DNA of 8,615 bases from an uncultured Oxalobacteraceae bacterium (GTDB taxonomy: Bacteria; Pseudomonadota; Gammaproteobacteria; Burkholderiales; Burkholderiaceae): positions 1 through 8,615 of the forward strand of contig CAMLHI010000071.1 in NCBI GenBank assembly GCA_946479705.1, written 5' to 3'. Made by a program: the position numbers and the translations under genes. Each line of letters starts with the position of its first letter. Positions within the stretch are counted from its first letter, which is position 1. This document shows positions 159 through 8,369 of this stretch, in pieces. The notes under the pieces were generated by a model, which saw only the letters and a program-made list of their open reading frames with translations, was not told the DNA's origin and did not search any database.

Positions 159-549
159 TGAAGGGTTTTCTTACCGTGCCGGGAAAACATGCAGCAAAAA
201 TTATCCTTTCGAATCAATGACTTATAAATTTCATTTTCACGTTGGAAATATTATGACGGAAGCATGACTTCCCGACAATTTTGTGGACAAAGTGTGGAAG
301 GGCCAATGCCAGACTTCGTCACAAAACCCGATGAAACGATCGATAAGATCGTCTTGGGATCTTTCTGCTGAAAGACCCTCCGAGCCGAAGCTTTGACGCT
401 ATGCCGGGTGTCAATTAACAATGAACAGGGTAGCGCTAGCCCAGTCGCCAGCCCACCCTCATGTAACAGCCAACTCGTTCAGTGTTAATTGGGCCTGGCT
501 TCAGCAATTCGGTAATTTGACGCGCTTTTCGTATCAGGAGCAATCTGAA

Positions 550-1347
550 ATGACCCAATCTTTTGCCGGCATGAACATTATTGACTATGGCAACATGCAG
601 ACGCGCGACCAGCTCGTCCCCAACACGGGCATGTCCGCCAGCCCTTCCCTCGCTGTTTTTAACGCCCAGCTCTATGCATTTCATCAAGGTGGCGGCAATT
701 GCGGTGAACTGTGGTTCAACACCTTCGATGGCAGCAATTGGGCCGGCGACAAGTTAGTACCGCAAACAGGTATGTCCGGAAGCCCCTCGGCAGTGGTCTT
801 CAATAATCACCTCTATTGCTTCCACCAAGGAACGAACGATTGCGGGCAACTTTGGTTTAACGTCTACGACGGGAGCAATTGGAGCGGCGATCGGCTGGTG
901 CCGAACACCGGCATGTCATCCAGTCCCTCGGCGCTTGTCTTTAACGGCCAGCTCTATTGTTTCCACCAGGGCTCGAACAATTGCGGACAACTTTGGTTCA
1001 ACGTGTACGACGGGAGCAATTGGAGCGGCGATCGGATGGTGCCGGACACCGGGATGTCCGACAGCCCTGGCGCGGTGGTATTCAACAATCAGTTGTACTG
1101 CTATCACCAGGGTTCTGGCAACTGCGGCGAGCTGTGGTTCAACCAGTTCAATCTGACCGCATGGCGCGGCGATCAGCGGGTGGAAAATACGGGCATGTCT
1201 GCCGGGCCTGCCGCAGCCGAATTCCAAGGCCAGATTTTCTGTCTCCACCAAGGGACGGAACACGACGGGCAGATGTGGGCCAATTTCGACCCGGCATTTG
1301 ACCTGATGAATGTGGTCACGGGACTTGCCAGTAAGATGTCCACATAG
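550..1347 (+). CDS. Five-repeat beta-propeller / lectin-like protein
   Basis: A 265-residue protein built almost entirely of five tandem 47-residue units starting at about residue 20. Each unit follows the plan D-x-V-P-x-T-G-M-S-x-S-P-x-x-V-F-N-x-x-L-Y-C-x-H-Q-G-x-x-x-C-G-x-L-W-F-N-x-x-D-G-x-x-W. The recurring SP, YCxHQG, GQLWFN and W positions resemble blades of propeller lectins and sialidase-like proteins, so sugar binding is a reasonable guess, not shown. The frame is open from an ATG at 421, but the ATG at 550 has AGGAG at 536-540, while 421 has no ribosome site and its extra 43 residues look unstructured. No signal peptide or membrane segment is seen with either start. The fifth unit is divergent: it lacks the Cys pair and the terminal W, and is followed by a short tail. 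The gene is less GC-rich than those to its right, hinting at separate acquisition. Confidence 0.75.
   Translation: MTQSFAGMNIIDYGNMQTRDQLVPNTGMSASPSLAVFNAQLYAFHQGGGNCGELWFNTFDGSNWAGDKLVPQTGMSGSPSAVVFNNHLYCFHQGTNDCGQLWFNVYDGSNWSGDRLVPNTGMSSSPSALVFNGQLYCFHQGSNNCGQLWFNVYDGSNWSGDRMVPDTGMSDSPGAVVFNNQLYCYHQGSGNCGELWFNQFNLTAWRGDQRVENTGMSAGPAAAEFQGQIFCLHQGTEHDGQMWANFDPAFDLMNVVTGLASKMST
607..1311 (+). repeat. Five tandem 141-bp coding repeats
   Basis: Units start at 607, 748, 889, 1030 and 1171, all exactly 141 bp and in frame. The part spanning the end of unit 2 and start of unit 3 (about 848-917) and the same part one unit later (about 989-1058) are nearly identical at DNA level, differing at only a few positions, which points to recent duplication of the central units. 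Units 1 and 5 are the most diverged. Confidence 0.85.
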
Positions 1348-1487: not shown

Positions 1488-2798
1488 TTACGCTTTCAGC
1501 GTCCGGTCAATGCGCTTGATTTCGCTGTCGTGCACGGTCACGGCGTCGAGAATCAGATTGGCGTAATCGAATGGGTCCTTGTGCGCCGCCAGGTAGCTGC
1601 TGAGTTTCTGGAAACTGGCGGCGTGGCTCGCGTCGCTCAGGCGCGTGGCGATGCACTTGATTCCGGCATCGATAACGAGCTTGCAATAGGCGGCCCACTT
1701 GGCGTTGCAATCACGCCGCGCCGCATCCTGGGTGGAGGCCGGGTCGCTCGCTTCAGCATACAGGGGGCACCAGGATTCGCCACGCCCCAGATGGGTGGAC
1801 GACGCCGGAAAGCCGTTCGCTTCCATGAAGATGGCGCAGGTAAAACAGGAAGCCAGTTTGGTCGTCTGATTGCCGACTGCAATTTCATAGGGCTTGCCAG
1901 CCTTGCGCCATGCCACGTCGTAGATGGCCTGGATCATGCCGTGGGTATAGCCGACGATGTCGCCCGGCCCCAGCTTCCTTTGCCGCGGATAGCGCACCAT
2001 GTCTTCGTCCTGGAAATACATGCCCTGGGCCTTGAGCGTGTCGGGGCGGCAGCCGCAGCTTTGCTTCGCGTTGTCGACGATCATGCCCCAGTAGCGCTGG
2101 TCGTCGCCAGGGCCAATCTCGGCTCCCAGATCCCACGCCGGCTTCGAGGCCGCCGTGGCGTCCTTTAGGCCGGGGGCCGGACTTTTTACCGCGCTGGGCA
2201 GCCAGCGCCGTGGATTGGCCTTATCCAGCGGCATGTCCGCTCCGGCGACCCGGTGCCGGAAGGTGGAAAACAGGCCGGGCTGGCGACTCGGATCATCGAG
2301 CTGGACGAAGCCGGTGTAGGCGCCGCGCCCCTGGTATCCCACGTCGGGCATCTGGGCGATTTTCATCAGCAGTGCGCCCGGCGTATGCTCCGGGGGCGCC
2401 GCTGCCACGTAGCGCTCGCTCGAGCCGGCTGGCAGATTGCCGCTGCCGCCGATGATGCGCACCACCCCGCCATCCTTGCCGTAGATGGGCGTGACGCCGG
2501 CGATGACTTCCTTCCCCTTGGCTTGCCGGCCGAAGTCGCCCCCCATCACGGCCAGGGCCGCGTTGATTTTGGCGATGCCGCGCAGGTGCAGATTCCAGTC
2601 GGCGGCGGCGGCCGGCGCCACCTGGCCGGGCGGGAGCGACATGGTGGCCGGATCGATTTCCATGTCGAACATGGCAGTCTTGGCGGCGGCGAGCCGGACG
2701 TAGGCATGGCCGACAATGGCCGCGCTCATGATGACATCGGCGTCGTCGCGGGGACTGGTGGCCGGGTCGAGTATGCCTTGTTGTTTGACGATTTGCAT
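1488..2798 (-). CDS. Uncharacterised 436-aa protein with Cys-rich C-terminal half
   Basis: I do not recognise this family. The start chosen is the ATG at 2798, preceded by GAGGAAAAATC; an in-frame ATG at 2864 would add 22 residues overlapping the upstream gene's end and has no comparable site. No signal peptide or membrane helix is evident. The N-terminal half (about 1-225) has no cysteine and is rich in Ala, Gly and Pro. The C-terminal half has eight: C248 and C250 (SCGC), C318 and C321 (SCFTC), C344 (WCPLY), C364, C372 and C382. The CxxC followed by a helix-like AIFMEANG and a His (THLGRG) could be a zinc site or a catalytic centre; a deaminase-like reading is possible, but I cannot find the matching upstream H/C-x-E motif. 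It is the last gene of the leftward cluster, 69 bp after the muramidase gene. An effector or envelope role would fit the context but is not demonstrated. Confidence 0.8.
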   Translation of the reverse strand: MQIVKQQGILDPATSPRDDADVIMSAAIVGHAYVRLAAAKTAMFDMEIDPATMSLPPGQVAPAAAADWNLHLRGIAKINAALAVMGGDFGRQAKGKEVIAGVTPIYGKDGGVVRIIGGSGNLPAGSSERYVAAAPPEHTPGALLMKIAQMPDVGYQGRGAYTGFVQLDDPSRQPGLFSTFRHRVAGADMPLDKANPRRWLPSAVKSPAPGLKDATAASKPAWDLGAEIGPGDDQRYWGMIVDNAKQSCGCRPDTLKAQGMYFQDEDMVRYPRQRKLGPGDIVGYTHGMIQAIYDVAWRKAGKPYEIAVGNQTTKLASCFTCAIFMEANGFPASSTHLGRGESWCPLYAEASDPASTQDAARRDCNAKWAAYCKLVIDAGIKCIATRLSDASHAASFQKLSSYLAAHKDPFDYANLILDAVTVHDSEIKRIDRTLKA

Positions 2799-2850
2799 GA
2801 TTTTTCCTCGGGATAGAAATTGGATGGGAAGGACGGCGCGGCGCAGTGGA

Positions 2851-2876
2851 CCGGCCTGGGGCACCGCTCAGGCCGG
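2851..2876. other. Intercistronic hairpin overlapping the muramidase stop codon
   Basis: CCGGCCTG (2851-2858) pairs perfectly with CAGGCCGG (2869-2876) around a 10-base loop. It spans the TGA stop of the GH19 gene. No T tract follows on either strand, so it is more likely an mRNA stability or translation element between the two genes than a terminator. Confidence 0.4.
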
Positions 2877-3527
2877 CGGGACGACGCTCAGGACCGCCTT
2901 GGCCAGCGCCCAGAAGGCGCGGCGCTGGAGCAAACCGTTGTTGCCGCCGTTGATGCGCTTGGTGATCTCAACAAAATAGGCATCCGCCTTGGGGCCGGCG
3001 GTCGCGTCGGCCACCTCGTTCAAGCCATGCGCCACCCAGAACCAGCCCGCCGACAGCGCCGCGCCCGGGGGCAGTTGCAACAGGTCTGGATTGGCCAGGG
3101 CGTCAAGCTGCATCTCGTGCGAGAACCTGGCGTAGTTCGCGCGCCCGGTCAGCTGGATCAGGCCGCGTCCGCGGTAGCGCCAGCCGTCGCCGCTGGCTTC
3201 GTCGCCGTTGCCCATGCGATTGGCATAGACGTGGTTGGCCAGTTTCTCAGGCTGATGGCTAAACGGCGCGGCCGCCGCGTCGCTGGCAAAATGGCCAGGC
3301 CACACCTCGCGCAGGCGCGCCGCCGAATAGCCCAGCGATTCCTGCACCTGCTTGAGCGTGGAGGACTCGTGCATGACCTGCGCCAGAAACGCGGCCTGTC
3401 TCACGGGTGTGGAAATGGCACAGGCAGCCATGGCCTTGTTGAGCGGCCCGACCCACAGGCCGGGACGCGGGTCGGCGGCGGGCGCGGCCAGCAAGGCGCC
3501 CAGCTGCTGTTGTGTAATGGGATTCAT
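2868..3527 (-). CDS. GH19-family lysozyme/chitinase-like hydrolase (phage-endolysin type)
   Basis: A 219-residue protein with the full catalytic core of glycoside hydrolase family 19 enzymes, which cut the glycan of peptidoglycan or chitin. Seen in order: FLAQVMHESS (E54, predicted acid), QESLGYSA (E63, second acid), YANRMGNGDEASGDG (about 101-115), then YRGRGLIQLTGRANY (about 118-132) and INGGNNGLLQRR near 192-203. E54, E63 and T127 match in order and spacing the Glu/Glu/Thr set described for the SPN1S endolysin. Length is typical of single-domain endolysins; there is no signal peptide, membrane anchor or cell-wall-binding domain, so export or cell lysis would be needed for it to reach its substrate. 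The ATG at 3527 has GGAG nine bases upstream. It is fifth of six genes in the cluster. A peptidoglycan substrate is favoured over chitin from similarity to phage enzymes. Confidence 0.9.
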   Translation of the reverse strand: MNPITQQQLGALLAAPAADPRPGLWVGPLNKAMAACAISTPVRQAAFLAQVMHESSTLKQVQESLGYSAARLREVWPGHFASDAAAAPFSHQPEKLANHVYANRMGNGDEASGDGWRYRGRGLIQLTGRANYARFSHEMQLDALANPDLLQLPPGAALSAGWFWVAHGLNEVADATAGPKADAYFVEITKRINGGNNGLLQRRAFWALAKAVLSVVPPA

Positions 3528-3565
3528 TGCGTTCGCTCCGATTCAATGTTCGAGGGGCGGTTCCG

Positions 3566-3600
3566 GCCGCCGGCCCGTGCACAGGCCGGCGGCGGTTTTT
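3566..3600 (+). terminator. Strong hairpin plus T tract, pointing against the operon
   Basis: GCCGCCGGCC (3566-3575) pairs perfectly with GGCCGGCGGC (3584-3593) around an 8-base loop and is followed by GG and five T. This is an intrinsic terminator for rightward transcripts, although both neighbouring genes run leftward. On the leftward transcript the same stem has no U tract after it and would instead sit between the DUF2589 and muramidase genes as an mRNA structure. A smaller stem, CAGCG/CGCTG (3611-3624), lies beside it and is also followed by T on the plus strand. Confidence 0.6.
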
Positions 3601-3631
3601 CACTACAGGACAGCGTCGCCGCTGCGCCTTT

Positions 3632-4252
3632 TTAAGTTGGCGTTGCAGCGCTAGTGGCTTTGACGCGCGGCTGGATCGACTGTTGCAGGATGTCGAGCAC
3701 GCGCGCCAAGCCTTCCGGCATGCCGTTGTCCTCGGCCAGCACCTGCACGTGGTACTTGGCCGAATTGTCCGACGTGCGGGTGTTTTCCTTGTGGGAGGCG
3801 ACCGAGCCTTCGACGTGGACATTGACGCTTAAGCAGCCCCAGCCGACTCGGCCATCGCCGGCGAAAGCGCCTTTCTTATCTTCCGATTCCGTCGAGCTGA
3901 ACGAGGACTTCACTTCCATGTCGAAGGTGATGTCGACCTTGGTGACGCTCAGGTTGGGCACCTTGACGATGGCCAGCATGGGCACGTCGAGGTGCATGTT
4001 TTCGTCCTTCATCTCGCCCGGCTTTTCGGGATCGACGATCGTGCGCGTGTATGCAAACCTGGCGAGACGAACGTCGCCCACATCGGCCGTGCTGCCTTTA
4101 TCCGGCGGCAGGAAGCCGATGGTTTTGATGAAGGTGGCGGTGGCGCCCGCCAGCTTCAATTGGGCCTCGCAGGCCGCCGTCAGCGGGCCGCCGATGAGGT
4201 CGCCCATGGGCAAGCCTTTGAATTGTGATGCCATATCTACGAGTTCAGCCAT
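3632..4252 (-). CDS. DUF2589 family protein (206 aa)
   Basis: The N-terminus carries the hallmark of the DUF2589 family: LPMGDLIGGPL (14-24) followed by AACEAQLKLAGATATFIKTIGF (26-47), the segment in which these proteins keep an AxAQ...T..FI..GF pattern. The middle block VPMLAIVKVPNLSVTKVDI (90-108), followed by TFDMEV, is the family's second conserved region, probably paired beta strands. The C-terminus ends in EGLARVLDILQQ (180-191). The family has no established function that I know of; proteins are soluble with no signal peptide. The ATG at 4252 is preceded by AAGGAG at ideal distance. The gene lies 128 bp downstream of the 196-aa gene, and the related 176-aa protein heads the same cluster, so the two probably act together, perhaps as partners or subunits of one assembly (inference). 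Confidence 0.85.
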   Translation of the reverse strand: MAELVDMASQFKGLPMGDLIGGPLTAACEAQLKLAGATATFIKTIGFLPPDKGSTADVGDVRLARFAYTRTIVDPEKPGEMKDENMHLDVPMLAIVKVPNLSVTKVDITFDMEVKSSFSSTESEDKKGAFAGDGRVGWGCLSVNVHVEGSVASHKENTRTSDNSAKYHVQVLAEDNGMPEGLARVLDILQQSIQPRVKATSAATPT

Positions 4253-4380
4253 TTCCTACTCCTTGACAAGTGGACCCTTGCGGGCCATGGTTTCCACACA
4301 AGGTGGACGGGAATCGCCGCGCTGCCTTGCGCTGGCAAGGGCGTGCGCGACATCCTTAGAGTAAGGCGCTGGAAAGTCGA
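4253..4380. other. 128-bp intercistronic gap with small hairpins
   Basis: The largest internal gap of the cluster. It holds a 6-bp stem with tetraloop (CCTTGC/GCAAGG, 4325-4340) and a 5-bp stem (TCCAC/GTGGA, 4293-4307), then the ribosome site of the DUF2589 gene. No T tract or convincing promoter was found, so continued transcription is assumed. A 10-codon ATG frame ends at 4256 just before the gene; I do not consider it real. Confidence 0.4.
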
Positions 4381-4971
4381 TTACGTGTCGGTTTCTGACG
4401 GTGTTGCCGTGCTTCTGCCCCAGCCGAACCAGGCCAGCAGGCGGCGCAGGCACGAGCGTGACGGCGCGGCATGCAGGCGCGCCAGCGCAGCCTGGGTGTC
4501 GGCGTCGAGGCGCACGATATACGGCGCGCCGCACGCGGCGCGTAACGGCGCGGCCATCTCGACGCTGACGCCGGCCGCGCCGGCTCCGGCCTTGATGCGC
4601 AGCGCCAGCAAGGGCGCCGGGCACAACACGCGCCGCCACCATGCGCGGCGGCCGGCGCACAACACGGCCTCGGTGCGGCGCTCCCAACCGAACTGATGCT
4701 TCGCGTAATAGCCGTAGACGGTCAGTTCCAGGCCATCCAGGCACAGCGCGAATTGCCGCTCGAACTGGTCCGCCGGAATGCGCTGTGGCGTGGTGGCGTC
4801 GCGCAACGGATCGACGTAAAGGAAATCGGCCCGCACGGCGCTGTGCGCGGCCGCCGTGCGGGCCGCCGCCTGCGCTTGCAGCCAGGCGTTGGCGTCGTGC
4901 CTGGCCTGCTCGGTAAGGTGCTGGAGAAATTGCGCATGGTAGCGGGCGGCCGCCGGCCTGAGGCTGCGCAT
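4381..4971 (-). CDS. Uncharacterised 196-aa cluster protein, possible relative of the 88-aa neighbour
   Basis: Not assigned to a known family. The start is the ATG at 4971, one base after the stop of the upstream 88-aa gene, which implies translational coupling; no good ribosome site is seen, in keeping with that. An in-frame ATG at 5079 would overlap the upstream gene heavily and add a Ser-rich shadow sequence, so it is rejected. Residues 10-45 look helical and Ala/Gln-rich. Residues 71-99 (from ERQFALCLDG to YYAKHQFGWERR) are probably beta strands and resemble residues 56-83 of the upstream 88-aa protein. The C-terminal third is Ala/Arg-rich with scattered Cys, including RSCLRRLLAWFGWGR (172-186), which could be an amphipathic membrane-touching helix. 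No signal peptide. Sandwiched between DUF2589-type genes, it is presumably part of the same assembly. Confidence 0.75.
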   Translation of the reverse strand: MRSLRPAAARYHAQFLQHLTEQARHDANAWLQAQAAARTAAAHSAVRADFLYVDPLRDATTPQRIPADQFERQFALCLDGLELTVYGYYAKHQFGWERRTEAVLCAGRRAWWRRVLCPAPLLALRIKAGAGAAGVSVEMAAPLRAACGAPYIVRLDADTQAALARLHAAPSRSCLRRLLAWFGWGRSTATPSETDT

Positions 4972-4972
4972 G

Positions 4973-5239
4973 CTAATCGAGGAACAAGGGCTTGCGCTCG
5001 AAGCCGATGTGGTAGACGGCATACTGCAACACGATCTGGTGCTCGCCGATATTGTAGAGGCCGAAGCTCTTCTCGACATTGAGGGTATAGCCGCGCGGCG
5101 ACGCCTGCAGGCAGTGGTTGACCAGGTCCATCGCCTCCTGCACCTCGGCTTCCGTTTTCATCGCCTGCGGATTGTCGTTGCCGACCACGATGCGTTTGAT
5201 GAAGCGGATGTTGGTCAATTGAAAGGTGTTTACGCTCAC
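4973..5239 (-). CDS. Uncharacterised 88-aa protein, GTG start
   Basis: The start is a GTG at 5239 with GGGAG six bases upstream; no ATG fits, since the only upstream in-frame ATG (5413) lies deep inside the preceding gene and yields an Arg/Ser-rich shadow. The protein reads as one compact domain: strand-like NTFQLTNIRFIKRIVVG (4-20), a helix TEAEVQEAMDLVNHCLQ (29-45), then YTLNVEKSFGLYNIG and QIVLQYAVYHIGFERKP in the C-terminal half, probably a beta hairpin. It has no signal peptide or membrane segment. The E-K-S-F-G-L and Y-A-x4-G-F-E-R-K elements recur in the next protein of the cluster. Spacing is tight on both sides: 25 bp after the first gene and 1 bp before the next. I do not recognise the family. 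Confidence 0.8.
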   Translation of the reverse strand: MSVNTFQLTNIRFIKRIVVGNDNPQAMKTEAEVQEAMDLVNHCLQASPRGYTLNVEKSFGLYNIGEHQIVLQYAVYHIGFERKPLFLD

Positions 5240-5264
5240 GCTGCTCTCCCGAGGTGGTGGACGA

Positions 5265-5795
5265 TCATGCCGGCGCGCGCGGCGCGAACGCGGCCGGCCC
5301 CTGAGCCTTGACGATATCGTTGACCAGGCGCGCGAGTCCTTCGGACTTCTCCGTCGCCACCAGCTTGAGCTTGATGTGGACGGCATTGCCGTTCTTAGCG
5401 GCCAGGCCGCCATTGGCCAGATTGACCATCAGGCCGGCTTTCATGTCGGCAGGCGCGGCGCGGCCGAGCTGGTCGATGATTCCTTCGTGCACGCCCGTGC
5501 GTTCTTGCTCCTCGAAGGCGCCCAATTCGACATCGAGCTCGATCTCGGCCTCGCCGATCACCAGCGAGCTGTGCGGCACGAGCGAAATGACCGGCACCCG
5601 GTACAGATGATGTGAATCGGCCAGGGCGGTGCTGTGGATCGCGGGCAGTTCCAGTTCGATGACGTTTGGCTGGTGCAGGTCGTCAAAGAAGGACGCGATA
5701 TTGGCCAATTGCGCCTTTTCCACCATGTGCTGCGCATTCATGACCGAGCCCGCTATCGCCCGCACCATGTCTTCCAGACTCGTCAAGATTGCCAT
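5265..5795 (-). CDS. DUF2589-like protein (176 aa), first gene of the cluster
   Basis: The ATG at 5795 has GGGAG eight bases upstream; an in-frame ATG at 5912 is rejected because its 39 extra residues look like intergenic DNA. The protein begins with a helical stretch, LEDMVRAIAGSVMNAQHMVEKAQL (7-30), corresponding to the N-terminal helix of DUF2589 proteins. It continues with YRVPVISLVPHSSLVIGEAEI (65-85) then ELDVEL, which matches the family's VPxLxxVxxPxLxIxxxxIxxDxEx strand block. It ends with HIKLKLVATEKSEGLARLVNDIVKAQ (140-165). The EGLAR element and the strand block are shared with the 206-aa DUF2589 protein, so the two are paralogues. It lacks the LPxxxLIGGPL signature, so it is a divergent member. 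The lead position and divergent neighbour at 6000 make 5796-5999 the likely control region. Confidence 0.82.
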   Translation of the reverse strand: MAILTSLEDMVRAIAGSVMNAQHMVEKAQLANIASFFDDLHQPNVIELELPAIHSTALADSHHLYRVPVISLVPHSSLVIGEAEIELDVELGAFEEQERTGVHEGIIDQLGRAAPADMKAGLMVNLANGGLAAKNGNAVHIKLKLVATEKSEGLARLVNDIVKAQGPAAFAPRAPA

Positions 5796-5999: not shown

Positions 6000-7418
6000 A
6001 TGAAAACTCTCCTATGCATGCTGGCATGCGCCATGGCGACCGGCACCGCGCCAGCGGCCGGGACGGCTACCGACGGCGTCTGTTCGTCCCACATCAGCAG
6101 CGCCGAGCCGGCTGACGCGCTGGTGCAAAGAGTGCGGGCGCCGATAGAACTGGCCATCGCCACGCTCGACAACGCCCAAGTCGCCTTACCTTCGCCGAGC
6201 CTGGCCAGCGGCACGATCGGCTATGTGACCGTCTCCCCCATTTTCGCGAACCAGCTGGACAAGGTCTGCGTGCTCGGCTATTTCGAGCTGGGGAGCGGCG
6301 CGCAGGCGCGGACCTTGCCGCTCGTGCTCGAAAGCGCGGAAGTGGTCAAGACGGCGCGGCGCCACGATGCGAGCCAGACGGTGGCGAGCGCACGCATTTA
6401 TTTCCACGTCCCCGCGCTCGCCGATTTCGGCGCGGGGACGGGCGCCCCGGCATTCTGGAAATTCTGGGCACCCCGCCAGATGCTGCACTTGAAGATCGCC
6501 GCCTTCGACTATGCGGCGGGGTCGGCGGGCCGGCCTATTTTCGGGCGCGATCAGAACATTGCCGTTTCCGACAAGGGCGTGAGCACCGTTGCCGCCTGCC
6601 TGTTTGCGGTCTTCTTTTACGTCGTGGCAGGCGTGGCGGTGCCGCGCGCGGCCGACCCGGCGCACCCGGCCTGGCATCGCCATCTGGCGCGCCTGGCCCC
6701 GTGGAACATCACCGGCGCTTCCGGCCAGGTCAGCCTGTCGCAGCTGCAAATGCTGGTGTTCACGCTGATCGTGGCCACGCTGCTGTTCTACCAATGGCTG
6801 CGCACCGGTTTGCTGGAGGAACTTTCGACGGACTTGCTGTATTTGATCGGCATTTCCACCGCCGGCACGGCCGCCACCGAAATCGCCACTTCAATCAGGA
6901 AAGACCTCGAGCCGGCCATCTATCAGTACCTGCAGCAGCTGGCCTGGTTTACGGCACCGGTGGCCGCTCCTTCCGGCCGGGCCAGCGCGAAGGGCTTGCT
7001 CATGACAAATGATCGTTTCGATATCTATAAATTCCAGATGCTGGTGTTTAGTTTCGTCATCGCCGCCTACGTCATTGCCAGCGGGGCCGATGAACTGGGT
7101 AAGGTCCGGATTTCGGCCACCTTGCTTACCTTAATGGGCATGAGCCAGGGGGCCTATGTGGGCGGGCGCGCAGCGGTCGACACGCTCGGCCCCTTGCAAG
7201 ACCAATTGCGCGGCATGCGGGCGCTGCAACAACGCTATGCGAGTTGCCAGGACGGGCGCGTGCGCGAGCAATTGCGGCGCCAGTTCGAACTCGCGGCGCA
7301 CGAGGCGGGCTCCATGTTCAACGCCATGTTCGGGCGGGTTCTGAGCGAAGCCATGCTGCTCATGCCGCCCGATAGCGACTGCGGCGCGGACGTGCCGGAG
7401 CGGGCGCCGCCGCTATAG
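6000..7418 (+). CDS. Membrane protein with signal peptide and duplicated two-helix unit (472 aa)
   Basis: The ATG at 6000 follows GAGG by five bases. Residues 1-20 form a signal peptide ending in an Ala-rich stretch (TAPAA). A soluble, probably periplasmic region (about 25-190) comes next, then a membrane helix at about 194-214. Two related membrane units follow. Unit 1 (246-298) has SLSQLQMLVFTLIVATLLF then LLYLIGISTAGTA. Unit 2 (342-394) has DIYKFQMLVFSFVIAAYVI then LLTLMGMSQGAYVGGRA. Each is a QMLVF helix, a short linker and an L[IM]G[IM]S-containing helix. The C-terminal 80 residues (about 395-472) are charged and helical, presumably cytoplasmic. Q-M-[LV]-x-[FW] helices followed by LLxLMGISQG occur in uncharacterised bacterial membrane proteins; their function is unknown to me. 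Divergent placement next to the cluster suggests it is the membrane partner of that system (inference). Confidence 0.88.
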   Translation: MKTLLCMLACAMATGTAPAAGTATDGVCSSHISSAEPADALVQRVRAPIELAIATLDNAQVALPSPSLASGTIGYVTVSPIFANQLDKVCVLGYFELGSGAQARTLPLVLESAEVVKTARRHDASQTVASARIYFHVPALADFGAGTGAPAFWKFWAPRQMLHLKIAAFDYAAGSAGRPIFGRDQNIAVSDKGVSTVAACLFAVFFYVVAGVAVPRAADPAHPAWHRHLARLAPWNITGASGQVSLSQLQMLVFTLIVATLLFYQWLRTGLLEELSTDLLYLIGISTAGTAATEIATSIRKDLEPAIYQYLQQLAWFTAPVAAPSGRASAKGLLMTNDRFDIYKFQMLVFSFVIAAYVIASGADELGKVRISATLLTLMGMSQGAYVGGRAAVDTLGPLQDQLRGMRALQQRYASCQDGRVREQLRRQFELAAHEAGSMFNAMFGRVLSEAMLLMPPDSDCGADVPERAPPL

Positions 7419-7450: not shown

Positions 7451-8071
7451 TCATGGGTCGATAATGAGCAAGTCACCAAAGGAATAGCCGCGTACGCGTT
7501 CCGTATTCAGGGGCAGTTGGACGCCGGCGCAGGCTTCGATCTTCTGGCGCAAGCGCCGCACCAGGGTATCGATCCGGTTCTGGTCGTAACTGAGATAGTC
7601 CTCACCGAAGGCCAACACGATCGACTTGCGCGAGACCGCTTCGCCCACATCGACCATCGCGAAAATCTTGATGAAGATGAATTCAAGCGTGGTGAGCTCG
7701 ATGATGGCGCCGGCCGGTGCTTCGAGCCGGCGGTGGCGCATGCTCAGGCGCCAGCCTGGCGTCAGCTGACGCGCCAGGTTGACAAGGAATTGGCGCAGAT
7801 GGGCCTTGCGCGCGCTGGTGTCGAGATTCAAGGCGATGGCGTTGGCGTTGAAGATCGTCACGGCGCCCGCGCGGCTTGCCGCGGCTGCTTCGCCCAAGGC
7901 ACCAGGCAGCATGGACGGGGGAAGCAATTCGGCCTGCAACTGCCGGCAGCAAGAGGCGACATCCCTCACTTCGACGACGTCGTATCCCGCAGTGTGAAAG
8001 ATTGCGGCAAGCTCATCGGTGCATCCTGACGCTTGGCTCATTAAGATGAGATTTGTCATAACCCTTTTCAT
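7451..8071 (-). CDS. Winged-helix transcriptional regulator, OmpR/PhoB C-terminal type, degenerate N-terminus
   Basis: Residues about 105-203 match the DNA-binding domain of OmpR/PhoB response regulators: an N-terminal strand region (WRLSMRHRRLEA), ELTTLEFIFIKIF (125-137), EAVSRKSIV, then the recognition-helix region QNRIDTLVRRLRQKIE (164-179) and the wing ERVRGYSFGDLL (191-202). The first 100 residues have the length and alternating pattern of a receiver domain but lack its acidic pair and an evident phosphoacceptor Asp, so phosphorylation by a histidine kinase is unlikely. No kinase gene is adjacent. The start at 8071 lacks a strong ribosome site; ATG at 8059 is an alternative, with AAGGG very close to it. 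The gene converges on the membrane-protein gene (32 bp gap) and is preceded by an inverted repeat suited to autoregulation. It is a good candidate for controlling the cluster, by position only. Confidence 0.85.
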   Translation of the reverse strand: MKRVMTNLILMSQASGCTDELAAIFHTAGYDVVEVRDVASCCRQLQAELLPPSMLPGALGEAAAASRAGAVTIFNANAIALNLDTSARKAHLRQFLVNLARQLTPGWRLSMRHRRLEAPAGAIIELTTLEFIFIKIFAMVDVGEAVSRKSIVLAFGEDYLSYDQNRIDTLVRRLRQKIEACAGVQLPLNTERVRGYSFGDLLIIDP

Positions 8072-8116: not shown

Positions 8117-8322
8117 CTCTGACATTATCTGACCCTGAAAAGTCAGCTTGCTCAGGCGCCATGGAAGGGAAGCCAGGACGCGGGGTGCGCAAGCATGCGA
8201 CGTGCGAAATTAGTTCACGCACAAGCGCTGTAGTCGGCGGGGTAAGCGGGACGAGGAAGGATGAGACTGAAGGTGCTCAGCCTTGCACTGACAGTTGCGC
8301 AGGCGGCGAGGCCCAGAAGGGA
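8117..8322. other. Non-coding stretch upstream of the orphan terminator
   Basis: No convincing protein gene. It contains short repeats around CTGAC/GTCAG (8119-8146). On the plus strand, a 25-codon frame from ATG 8261, preceded by GAGG, stops at 8338 inside the terminator stem. Its peptide (MRLKVLSLALTVAQAARPRR and five more residues) could be a leader peptide or a chance frame. A small rightward RNA ending at the terminator is another possibility. Confidence 0.3.
8124..8129 (-). promoter_or_regulatory. Possible -10 element for the winged-helix regulator gene
   Basis: On the minus strand GATAAT matches TATAAT at five of six positions, about 52 bp before the start codon. No good -35 hexamer is found at 16-18 bp spacing, so the promoter would need an activator or is weak. 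Confidence 0.3.
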
Positions 8323-8325
8323 GAT

Positions 8326-8369
8326 GATCCCCTGTTGAGTGTGTAAATTCAACAGGGGATCGTCTTTTT
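8326..8369 (+). terminator. Strong rho-independent terminator, rightward
   Basis: GATCCCCTGTTGA (8326-8338) pairs perfectly over 13 bp with TCAACAGGGGATC (8349-8361) around a 10-base loop, followed by GTC and five T (8365-8369). Additional bases (8323-8325 with 8362-8364) can extend the stem with one wobble pair. It serves plus-strand transcripts, but the nearest recognised plus-strand gene ended at 7418, with an opposite-strand gene in between. Confidence 0.85.

What the first reader, a model, noticed from the sequence alone, without database searches (positions are those of the whole stretch)
1488..5795. Six-gene cluster pairing two DUF2589 paralogues with a GH19 muramidase and a Cys-rich protein
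Six same-strand genes with good ribosome sites combine two DUF2589-type proteins, two small related proteins, a single-domain endolysin-type hydrolase without a signal peptide, and a Cys-rich 436-aa protein. There are no phage structural, integrase or secretion genes around. DUF2589 has no established role. The composition suggests a dedicated assembly (envelope-acting, delivery or lysis-release module) that is not a standard prophage lysis cassette.
Basis: partly seen in the sequence, partly recalled or inferred. Interest (0 to 1): 0.75.

Follow-up and report, generated by a model that had tools for sequence, protein, structure and literature searches.

The report
DUF2589 pair with wall-cutter and passenger
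A soil bacterium carries a compact gene set in which two relatives of an uncharacterised protein family sit beside a cell-wall-cutting enzyme and a passenger enzyme whose relatives elsewhere sit beside known membrane-piercing toxins, so it is probably a toxin-delivery or toxin-release module of unknown working.

Summary
The six genes are real. The conserved unit is five of them (DUF2589b, p88, p196, DUF2589a, GH19), in this order in 7 of 8 Burkholderiales genomes with this type. The sixth, C436, is a separable passenger.

DUF2589 genes form same-strand pairs in 37 of 48 non-redundant loci from several phyla and phage-like contigs; p88 is in 18. A peptidoglycan hydrolase of one of eight Pfam families lies within 2 kb in 18 of 48 loci. 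In a control zone 4-7 kb away I found none, or one doubtful case, though tallies were only partly displayed. Wall cutting is kept while the enzyme changes.

C436 has no Pfam or PDB relative. Of 19 loci, six lie beside a cytolysin, xenorhabdolysins, a delta-endotoxin-type protein or R-body genes, three beside DUF2589.

Best reading: a toxin/effector module. DUF2589 plus p88 is the (possibly membrane-active) core, the hydrolase opens the wall, C436 is an exchangeable co-toxin. Nothing was shown experimentally; no holin was found. Loci without a recognised hydrolase (30 of 48) count against a universal lysis role.

The parts
5265..5795 (-). DUF2589b, 176 aa, first gene of the cluster
   Evidence: PF11655 1.3e-20; profile match to DUF2589a at 96.6% probability, E 5.5e-10
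4973..5239 (-). p88, 88 aa, family without Pfam or PDB match; found beside DUF2589
   Evidence: in 18 of 48 DUF2589 loci (plus the window); all 3 plasmid and both viral-contig p88 places found lie beside DUF2589
4381..4971 (-). p196, about 196 aa, seen only in the Burkholderiales type
   Evidence: (cluster 8); no PDB match
3632..4252 (-). DUF2589a, 206 aa; N-terminal helix, beta domain with a Ser/Thr-rich amphipathic stretch (residues about 112-166)
   Evidence: PF11655 1.8e-43; 1510 relatives; low-confidence model; hairpin statistics
2868..3527 (-). GH19 endolysin-type peptidoglycan hydrolase, 219 aa, no signal-like N terminus or membrane segment by hydropathy
   Evidence: PF00182 and PHROG 181 endolysin; PDB 9eoi_A 1.3e-48; hydropathy
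1488..2798 (-). C436, passenger; invariant H286, C318-x-x-C321, H336-x-G-x-x-x-S342-W343
   Evidence: 334 relatives; alignment of 25; confident model without a PDB match
6000..7418 (+). TM472, membrane protein with three predicted membrane segments; near the module in 3 of 8 related genomes
7451..8071 (-). RR206, OmpR/PhoB-type winged-helix regulator; within the fetched 19-21 kb around the module in 8 of 8 related genomes
   Evidence: PF00486 7.3e-07; cluster 6

Best explanation
The cluster is a toxin/effector module acting at cell envelopes. Step 1 (shown): DUF2589b, p88 and DUF2589a form a conserved core found across phyla, plasmids and phage-like contigs; p196 is a Burkholderiales addition. 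Step 2 (shown by context only): the core is often paired with a peptidoglycan hydrolase whose family is exchanged between lineages, so wall opening is the conserved job there. Step 3 (shown by context only): one slot carries an exchangeable enzyme-like passenger. It is C436 in the window and a 404-aa protein with nitrilase-like motifs in two relatives. C436 accompanies cytolysin, xenorhabdolysin, delta-endotoxin-type and R-body genes elsewhere. Step 4 (inferred): the proteins build up in the cytoplasm, since they show no signal peptides. The hydrolase then lets them out by lysing some producer cells, or opens the target's wall. The DUF2589 pair perforates or carries the passenger through a membrane, filling the place that known pore-formers fill in other C436 loci. 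Step 5 (inferred): RR206 controls expression.
For: Order DUF2589b-p88-p196-DUF2589a-GH19 in 7 of 8 Burkholderiales genomes with this type. A hydrolase within 2 kb in 18 of 48 non-redundant loci, from eight Pfam families: GH19 6 (four of them by phmmer to the window's protein), Phage_lysozyme 3, Pesticin 2, Muramidase 2, SLT 2, GH108 1, Amidase_3 1, CHAP 1. In the 4-7 kb zone (42 of the 48 loci have genes there) none was found, or one by-eye M15-like protein. By length scanned (183 against 198 kb) this gives p 1.8e-6, or 2.3e-5 with that one. C436 lies 64 bp from a thiol-activated cytolysin (PF01289 5e-96) in L005 and 188 bp from a delta-endotoxin N domain (4.5e-17) in L011. It lies in one gene run with XaxA (7e-84 in L009) and XaxB (4.1e-42 in L009), also in L010 and L012 by phmmer, and 2.2 kb from a group of six RebB matches in L001. 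C436 lies beside DUF2589 in the window, L002, L069, L086 and L172; L172 was found through DUF2589, not through C436. Of 8 Burkholderiales genomes with C436, 5 carry DUF2589, against 6 of 144 others in the family sample (p 4e-5; counts).
Against: No function was tested. DUF2589 has no sequence or fold match to a pore-former, and its model is poor (pLDDT 60). Profile comparison with the XaxAB-linked p462 family failed (7% probability, E 0.005 for one pair). 30 of 48 DUF2589 loci have no recognised hydrolase within 2 kb, among them phage-like contigs of 54-201 kb and Brachyspira. Archaeoglobus also has a DUF2589 gene cluster, although archaea have no such wall (recalled). No known pore-forming family is seen among the Pfam families displayed beside DUF2589. 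In 10 of 19 C436 loci I recognised neither a known toxin nor DUF2589 nearby; of these L008 and L019 were not inspected gene by gene. Five of the GH19 loci are close relatives; counting them once gives 14 of 44. The distal control is incompletely displayed and holds one phage metallopeptidase of unknown target (PF18894).
Confidence: 0.4

Rival explanations
1. A lysis-release (T10SS-like) cassette in which the DUF2589 pair stands in for the holin: it opens the producer's inner membrane so that GH19, then the passenger, escape.
For: 16 of 18 linked hydrolases show no N-terminal membrane segment and so need a partner to leave the cytoplasm. A T10SS releases Tc toxin by lysis of a cell subset in Yersinia entomophaga (PMC10847048, abstract read).
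Against: No small membrane protein (160 aa or less) within 2 kb in 13 of the 18 hydrolase loci, the window included; the other five have one each, only two of them on the module's strand (L101, L103). DUF2589b and p88 never show a membrane-like segment (0 of 47 and 0 of 28 hits; DUF2589a 4 of 74). Many DUF2589 loci have no recognised hydrolase.
Confidence: 0.25
2. An antibacterial system: the DUF2589 core delivers the hydrolase (and passenger) into rival bacteria.
For: The most frequent recognised neighbour function is a hydrolase of bacterial wall. Amidase plus a Tle1-type phospholipase gene lie together in L081.
Against: No immunity-like gene was recognised beside the hydrolase in the window (by eye; not searched specifically). 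C436 keeps company with cytolysin, Xax and Cry-type genes that are known from other work to act on eukaryotic membranes (recalled). No T6SS or contractile-injection family was among those displayed.
Confidence: 0.15
3. A phage-derived or stress-induced self-lysis or abortive-infection module of the host.
For: DUF2589a/b occur in 8 IMG/VR loci (two of them near-duplicates) and with p88 in L194. Endolysin-type hydrolases are phage-like.
Against: No phage structural gene was recognised in the window, and neither DUF2589 protein matches a PHROG family. The anti-phage library was not searched.
Confidence: 0.1

Closest known systems
T10SS / holin-endolysin toxin release (Serratia chitinase system, Yersinia YenLC)
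   Same: Endolysin-type hydrolase without signal peptide encoded with cytoplasmic, signal-less proteins
   Different: No holin or spanin found; core made of DUF2589, p88 and p196
Streptolysin O with its co-toxin NADase (SPN)
   Same: A pore-former and an enzyme encoded together, as C436 with a cytolysin in L005
   Different: No homology of DUF2589 to a cytolysin was found (one cytolysin tested); C436 matches no known enzyme. Starts of abstracts only
Alpha-xenorhabdolysin (XaxAB) loci
   Same: In L009 and L010 XaxA/XaxB sit with C436 and a GH19 gene, a parallel arrangement
   Different: XaxAB are alpha-pore-forming toxins (PMC6086661, abstract start in the listing); DUF2589 shows no Pfam, NCBIfam or PDB match to them
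R-bodies (Reb)
   Same: C436 lies 2.2 kb from RebB-type genes in L001
   Different: No Reb gene in the window; Reb is not enriched in DUF2589 genomes (1 of 33 against 2 of 200 over the cut-off)

Membership tests
DUF2589 (PF11655) | score over the Pfam cut-off | tested here: met
   149 and 74.8 bits, cut-off 23
GH19 endolysin-type hydrolases | family score and the HES and GDEASGDGWR(Y/F)RGRG stretches shared with solved relatives | tested here: met
   the catalytic role of the Glu residues is recalled, activity untested
T10SS / holin-endolysin cassette | endolysin without signal peptide | tested here: met
   hydropathy
T10SS / holin-endolysin cassette | small membrane holin next to the endolysin | tested here: not met
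   no called gene of 60-160 aa with a membrane segment within 2 kb of the core in the window (hydropathy scan)
T10SS / holin-endolysin cassette | spanin pair | tested here: inconclusive
   none seen; embedded overlapping spanins not searched specifically
Prophage lysis cassette | phage structural or integrase genes around | tested here: not met
   nine proteins of the window against PHROGs: only GH19 matches named phage families (endolysins, a chitinase and, through the same domain, a tail-fibre family); RR206 matches one of unknown function. The window is only 8.6 kb
Known pore-forming toxins | sequence or fold match of DUF2589 | tested here: inconclusive
   none by sequence; model too poor for a fold verdict
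R-body (Reb) system | RebB-type proteins (PF11747) | tested here: not met
   none among nine window proteins; no genome enrichment
T6SS / eCIS delivery | sheath, tube, spike or baseplate genes | tested here: inconclusive
   none in the window and none among displayed neighbour families, which show only the first 25 families each

The most novel reading that the evidence does not exclude
DUF2589 pairs with p88 are a previously unrecognised two-part membrane-perforating machine, used by bacteria of several phyla and by large phages, that recruits whichever peptidoglycan hydrolase is at hand and carries exchangeable enzyme passengers such as C436. C436 would be a general co-toxin that travels with unrelated pore-formers.
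Probability: 0.22. Interest if true: 0.85.

Novelty: new variant of a known kind. Interest (0 to 1): 0.6.

Why it matters
In the held library the term DUF2589 occurs in one paper only, for genes of Archaeoglobus induced on lactate, and PF11655 in none. The hydrolase exchange gives this large family (1510 relatives of DUF2589a alone) a first testable function at the envelope. The C436 context links one uncharacterised enzyme-like family to several unrelated membrane-attacking systems, a lead to a shared co-toxin.

Tried and rejected
R-body link: suggested by L001 (C436 near RebB genes). Rejected as a property of DUF2589, since 1 of 33 DUF2589 genomes against 2 of 200 sampled genomes (3 at E 0.001) have RebB over the cut-off.

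DUF2589 as a homologue of the p462 protein of XaxAB loci: a by-eye resemblance, not supported by hhalign (7% and 3.5% probability), nor by comparison with the L005 cytolysin.

C436 fold: the model is good (pLDDT 87, pTM 0.91) but no PDB match was found (the tool warns that single domains of models over 400 residues can be missed). The order strand-H286-helix, strand, C318xxC321-helix recalls deaminase-type zinc sites, but the usual HxE is HGM here, so I do not claim it.

DUF2589a fold searches: no PDB match. One viral protein, A0A516MP19, matched at 1.3e-9 with 38% identity; it has no name in the tables.

404-aa passenger as nitrilase: motifs by eye only. Pfam gave nothing, and PDB nothing convincing. 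None of the 120 listed homologues shows such a domain; four show PF02839.

C436 in viral contigs: none. C436 in plasmids: one partial match among insertion sequences, uninformative. Two genome samples for more C436 loci (188 and 175 genomes) gave only the centres themselves. Rfam: no match in the window.

Limits of the counts: the Pfam tallies display 25 families each, so single weaker families are hidden. Searches covered 225 of 262 proximal proteins of at least 75 aa; left out were 26 of the window, L002, L067, L068 and L072 (some scanned), ten others, mostly long, and the C436 of L086. One search covered 148 of 179 distal proteins; left out were the 26 of L002, L067, L068 and L072 and five others. 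To firm up the control I scanned 56 distal proteins chosen by eye as possibly unknown (25 of 30 families shown, no known hydrolase family among them, one phage metallopeptidase); the rest were judged by eye on their first 75 residues. Rows dropped before counting: L018, L022, L024 and L004 as duplicates, L155 and L157 as Brachyspira repeats, and loci over 75% identical to a kept one. Not fetched: partial DUF2589 matches of G977, G863, G904, G997 and one of G068. L070 has no DUF2589a and is not among the 48; L194 came later and is not among them. L076 is a broken gene (stops inside), counted among the 48 but not as a pair. Assignment of single hydrolases behind the tallies rests on phmmer; for L103 it rests on the tally of two SLT members, with L102 confirmed alone. 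Loci were found partly through C436 and partly through DUF2589, so linkage counts are ascertained, except L172. L182 (peptidoglycan-binding below cut-off), L085, L163 and L167 look like further hydrolases by eye and were not counted. The eight Burkholderiales genomes are those with this type; three further DUF2589 genomes of the family sample (G068, G092, G094) have other types.
Full report
What is there. The window's DUF2589a lies on contigs of at most 11.8 kb, and its nearest named relatives are Oxalobacteraceae. On the minus strand, in order, are DUF2589b, p88, p196, DUF2589a, GH19 and C436. Both DUF2589 proteins pass PF11655, and GH19 passes its Pfam cut-off and matches PHROG endolysins. 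p88, p196, C436 and TM472 have no Pfam match over the cut-off. Upstream and divergent is TM472; beyond it is RR206, a winged-helix regulator.

Conservation of the unit. In Burkholderiales genomes with this type, DUF2589b-p88-p196-DUF2589a-GH19 keep their order in 7 of 8 (L002, L067, L068, L071, L072, L073, L074). In the eighth (G004) the set is split: DUF2589b-p88-p196 in L070, DUF2589a with C436 in L069 (p196 is recognisable but weak in L002 and L067). RR206 is within the fetched stretch in 8 of 8 and TM472 in 3 of 8. DUF2589 is rare: 7 of 145 genomes of the family sample, 9 of 398 of the phylum, 8 of 149, 3 of 146 and 9 of 198 in three further phyla, 2 of 78 and 15 of 247 in two further orders.

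Pairs and p88. I collected DUF2589 loci from these searches, from plasmids and from viral contigs. After removing near-identical ones 48 remained. In 37 of 48, at least two DUF2589 genes lie on one strand within 2.5 kb; in 18, p88 is there (plus the window). A profile comparison links DUF2589a and b (96.6%). p88 was found beside DUF2589 in all 3 plasmid and both viral places found; one of four DUF2589 plasmids has no p88.

Wall-cutting neighbours. Within 2 kb of the DUF2589/p88 core, 18 of 48 loci encode a peptidoglycan hydrolase. They are GH19 (window, L002, L067, L068, L072, L083), phage lysozyme (L080, L104, L172), pesticin-like lysozyme (L084, L173), N-acetylmuramidase (L101, L105), SLT transglycosylase with an SBP_bac_3 domain (L102, L103), GH108 (L020), Amidase_3 (L081) and CHAP (L168). 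Fourteen of the 18 lie less than 450 bp from the core; the others 0.6-1.7 kb. In the 4-7 kb zone of the same loci phmmer with the proximal hydrolases found only an M15-like protein in L067, and no hydrolase family is among those displayed by Pfam. Scanned lengths were 183 and 198 kb; p is 1.8e-6, or 2.3e-5 with the doubtful case. If five closely related GH19 loci count as one, 14 of 44 remain. 16 of the 18 enzymes show no N-terminal membrane segment; L168 has a short hydrophobic start below the threshold. In 30 loci none was recognised, among them Brachyspira, the Bacteroidota loci apart from L168 (and, by eye, L167 at 2.0 kb), and the phage-like contigs L021, L023, L026 and L027. L194, a phage-like contig of 195 kb found later, carries DUF2589a, p88 and DUF2589b. 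In Archaeoglobus a group of DUF2589-related genes responds to lactate (PMC3949148, one passage read). The hydrolase is therefore a frequent but not obligatory partner.

The passenger. C436 has 334 relatives in several phyla, with invariant motifs around H286, C318xxC321 and H336. Its model is confident, yet no PDB match was found. Of 19 genome loci, three lie by DUF2589 (L002, L004/L069, L018/L086). Six lie by known membrane-attacking genes: a thiol-activated cytolysin 64 bp upstream and a PI-PLC in L005; XaxA and XaxB in L009, L010 and L012, with GH19 in L009 and L010; a delta-endotoxin N-domain protein 188 bp downstream in L011; RebB-type genes in L001. In ten I recognised neither, though L008 and L019 were not inspected gene by gene. 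L172, fetched through DUF2589, also carries a C436 relative (6e-18). In L068 and L072 the slot behind GH19 holds a 404-aa protein instead. Fifteen contig lengths coincide, counted by hand, between the 120 listed homologues of that protein and the 120 of DUF2589a, so it is probably the usual passenger of the family; two coincide for C436, the window's own contig and one of 8049 bases. Four of the 120 listed relatives of the 404-aa protein carry PF02839, a carbohydrate-binding module (recalled). Some C436 relatives are longer; one begins with what looks by eye like a Tat signal (P0134).

DUF2589 itself. The only model is weak: one long helix, a beta domain and a final helix. Residues 112-166 are rich in Ser and Thr (28% against 16% overall in the alignment) and contain alternating strands. 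This is compatible with a membrane-inserting hairpin but proves nothing. No homology to a pore-former was found.

Interpretation. The facts that need explaining are the fixed core, the exchange of unrelated wall-cutting enzymes, the exchangeable passenger, and the passenger's company elsewhere. An effector module that must cross envelopes explains all four. The closest working analogy is T10SS-coupled toxin release, where lysis frees folded toxins (PMC10847048, abstract; PMC9527704, passages). The co-toxin aspect recalls streptolysin O with NADase (search listing and starts of abstracts only). The defining holin was looked for and not found, so I do not file it as a T10SS. Whether DUF2589 makes the pore, acts as a carrier or does something else is open.

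Noticed in passing
window 421-1347, + strand: 308-aa protein with tandem repeats of 47 aa (141-bp unit, 3.0 copies by TRF, about five by eye), Kelch-like below the cut-off; no relative in the other loci searched.
   Followed up: partly
L009 2607-13644, L010, L012: Gene run XaxA-XaxB-p462-p421-C436-788 aa, with a GH19 gene upstream in L009 and L010. C436 and the 788-aa protein share a similar region.
   Followed up: partly
L005 7253-11275: PI-PLC, thiol-activated cytolysin and C436 in tandem in Chryseobacterium taiwanense.
   Followed up: partly
L162, L163, L165, L105, L161, L178, L179; L167-L170, L082, L180, L183, L184: Other small conserved companions of DUF2589: a zinc-ribbon-like protein (CPxC..CPxC) of about 62-111 aa and a protein of about 180-210 aa; they look like module subtypes.
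   Followed up: no
L164 7589-8188; L178 8072-8578; L067 4220-4876; L081 11518-13317: Further effector-like genes by DUF2589: two that look like ADP-ribosyltransferases by eye (no Pfam match for L164), a C58-type peptidase (6.2e-11) and a Tle1-type phospholipase (2.8e-69).
   Followed up: partly
L020 (IMG/VR 19.9-kb contig): A GH108-DUF2589b-DUF2589a-p88 run on the same contig as a PM2-like coat protein P2.
   Followed up: no
L001 6463-9777, L178 2985-6200, L179, L070: Large related proteins of about 870-1100 aa that look by eye like N-terminal winged-helix regulators, shared between a C436/Reb locus and DUF2589 loci.
   Followed up: no
window 8320-8367: Terminator-like hairpin of 20 pairs at the far end of the window.
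   Followed up: no
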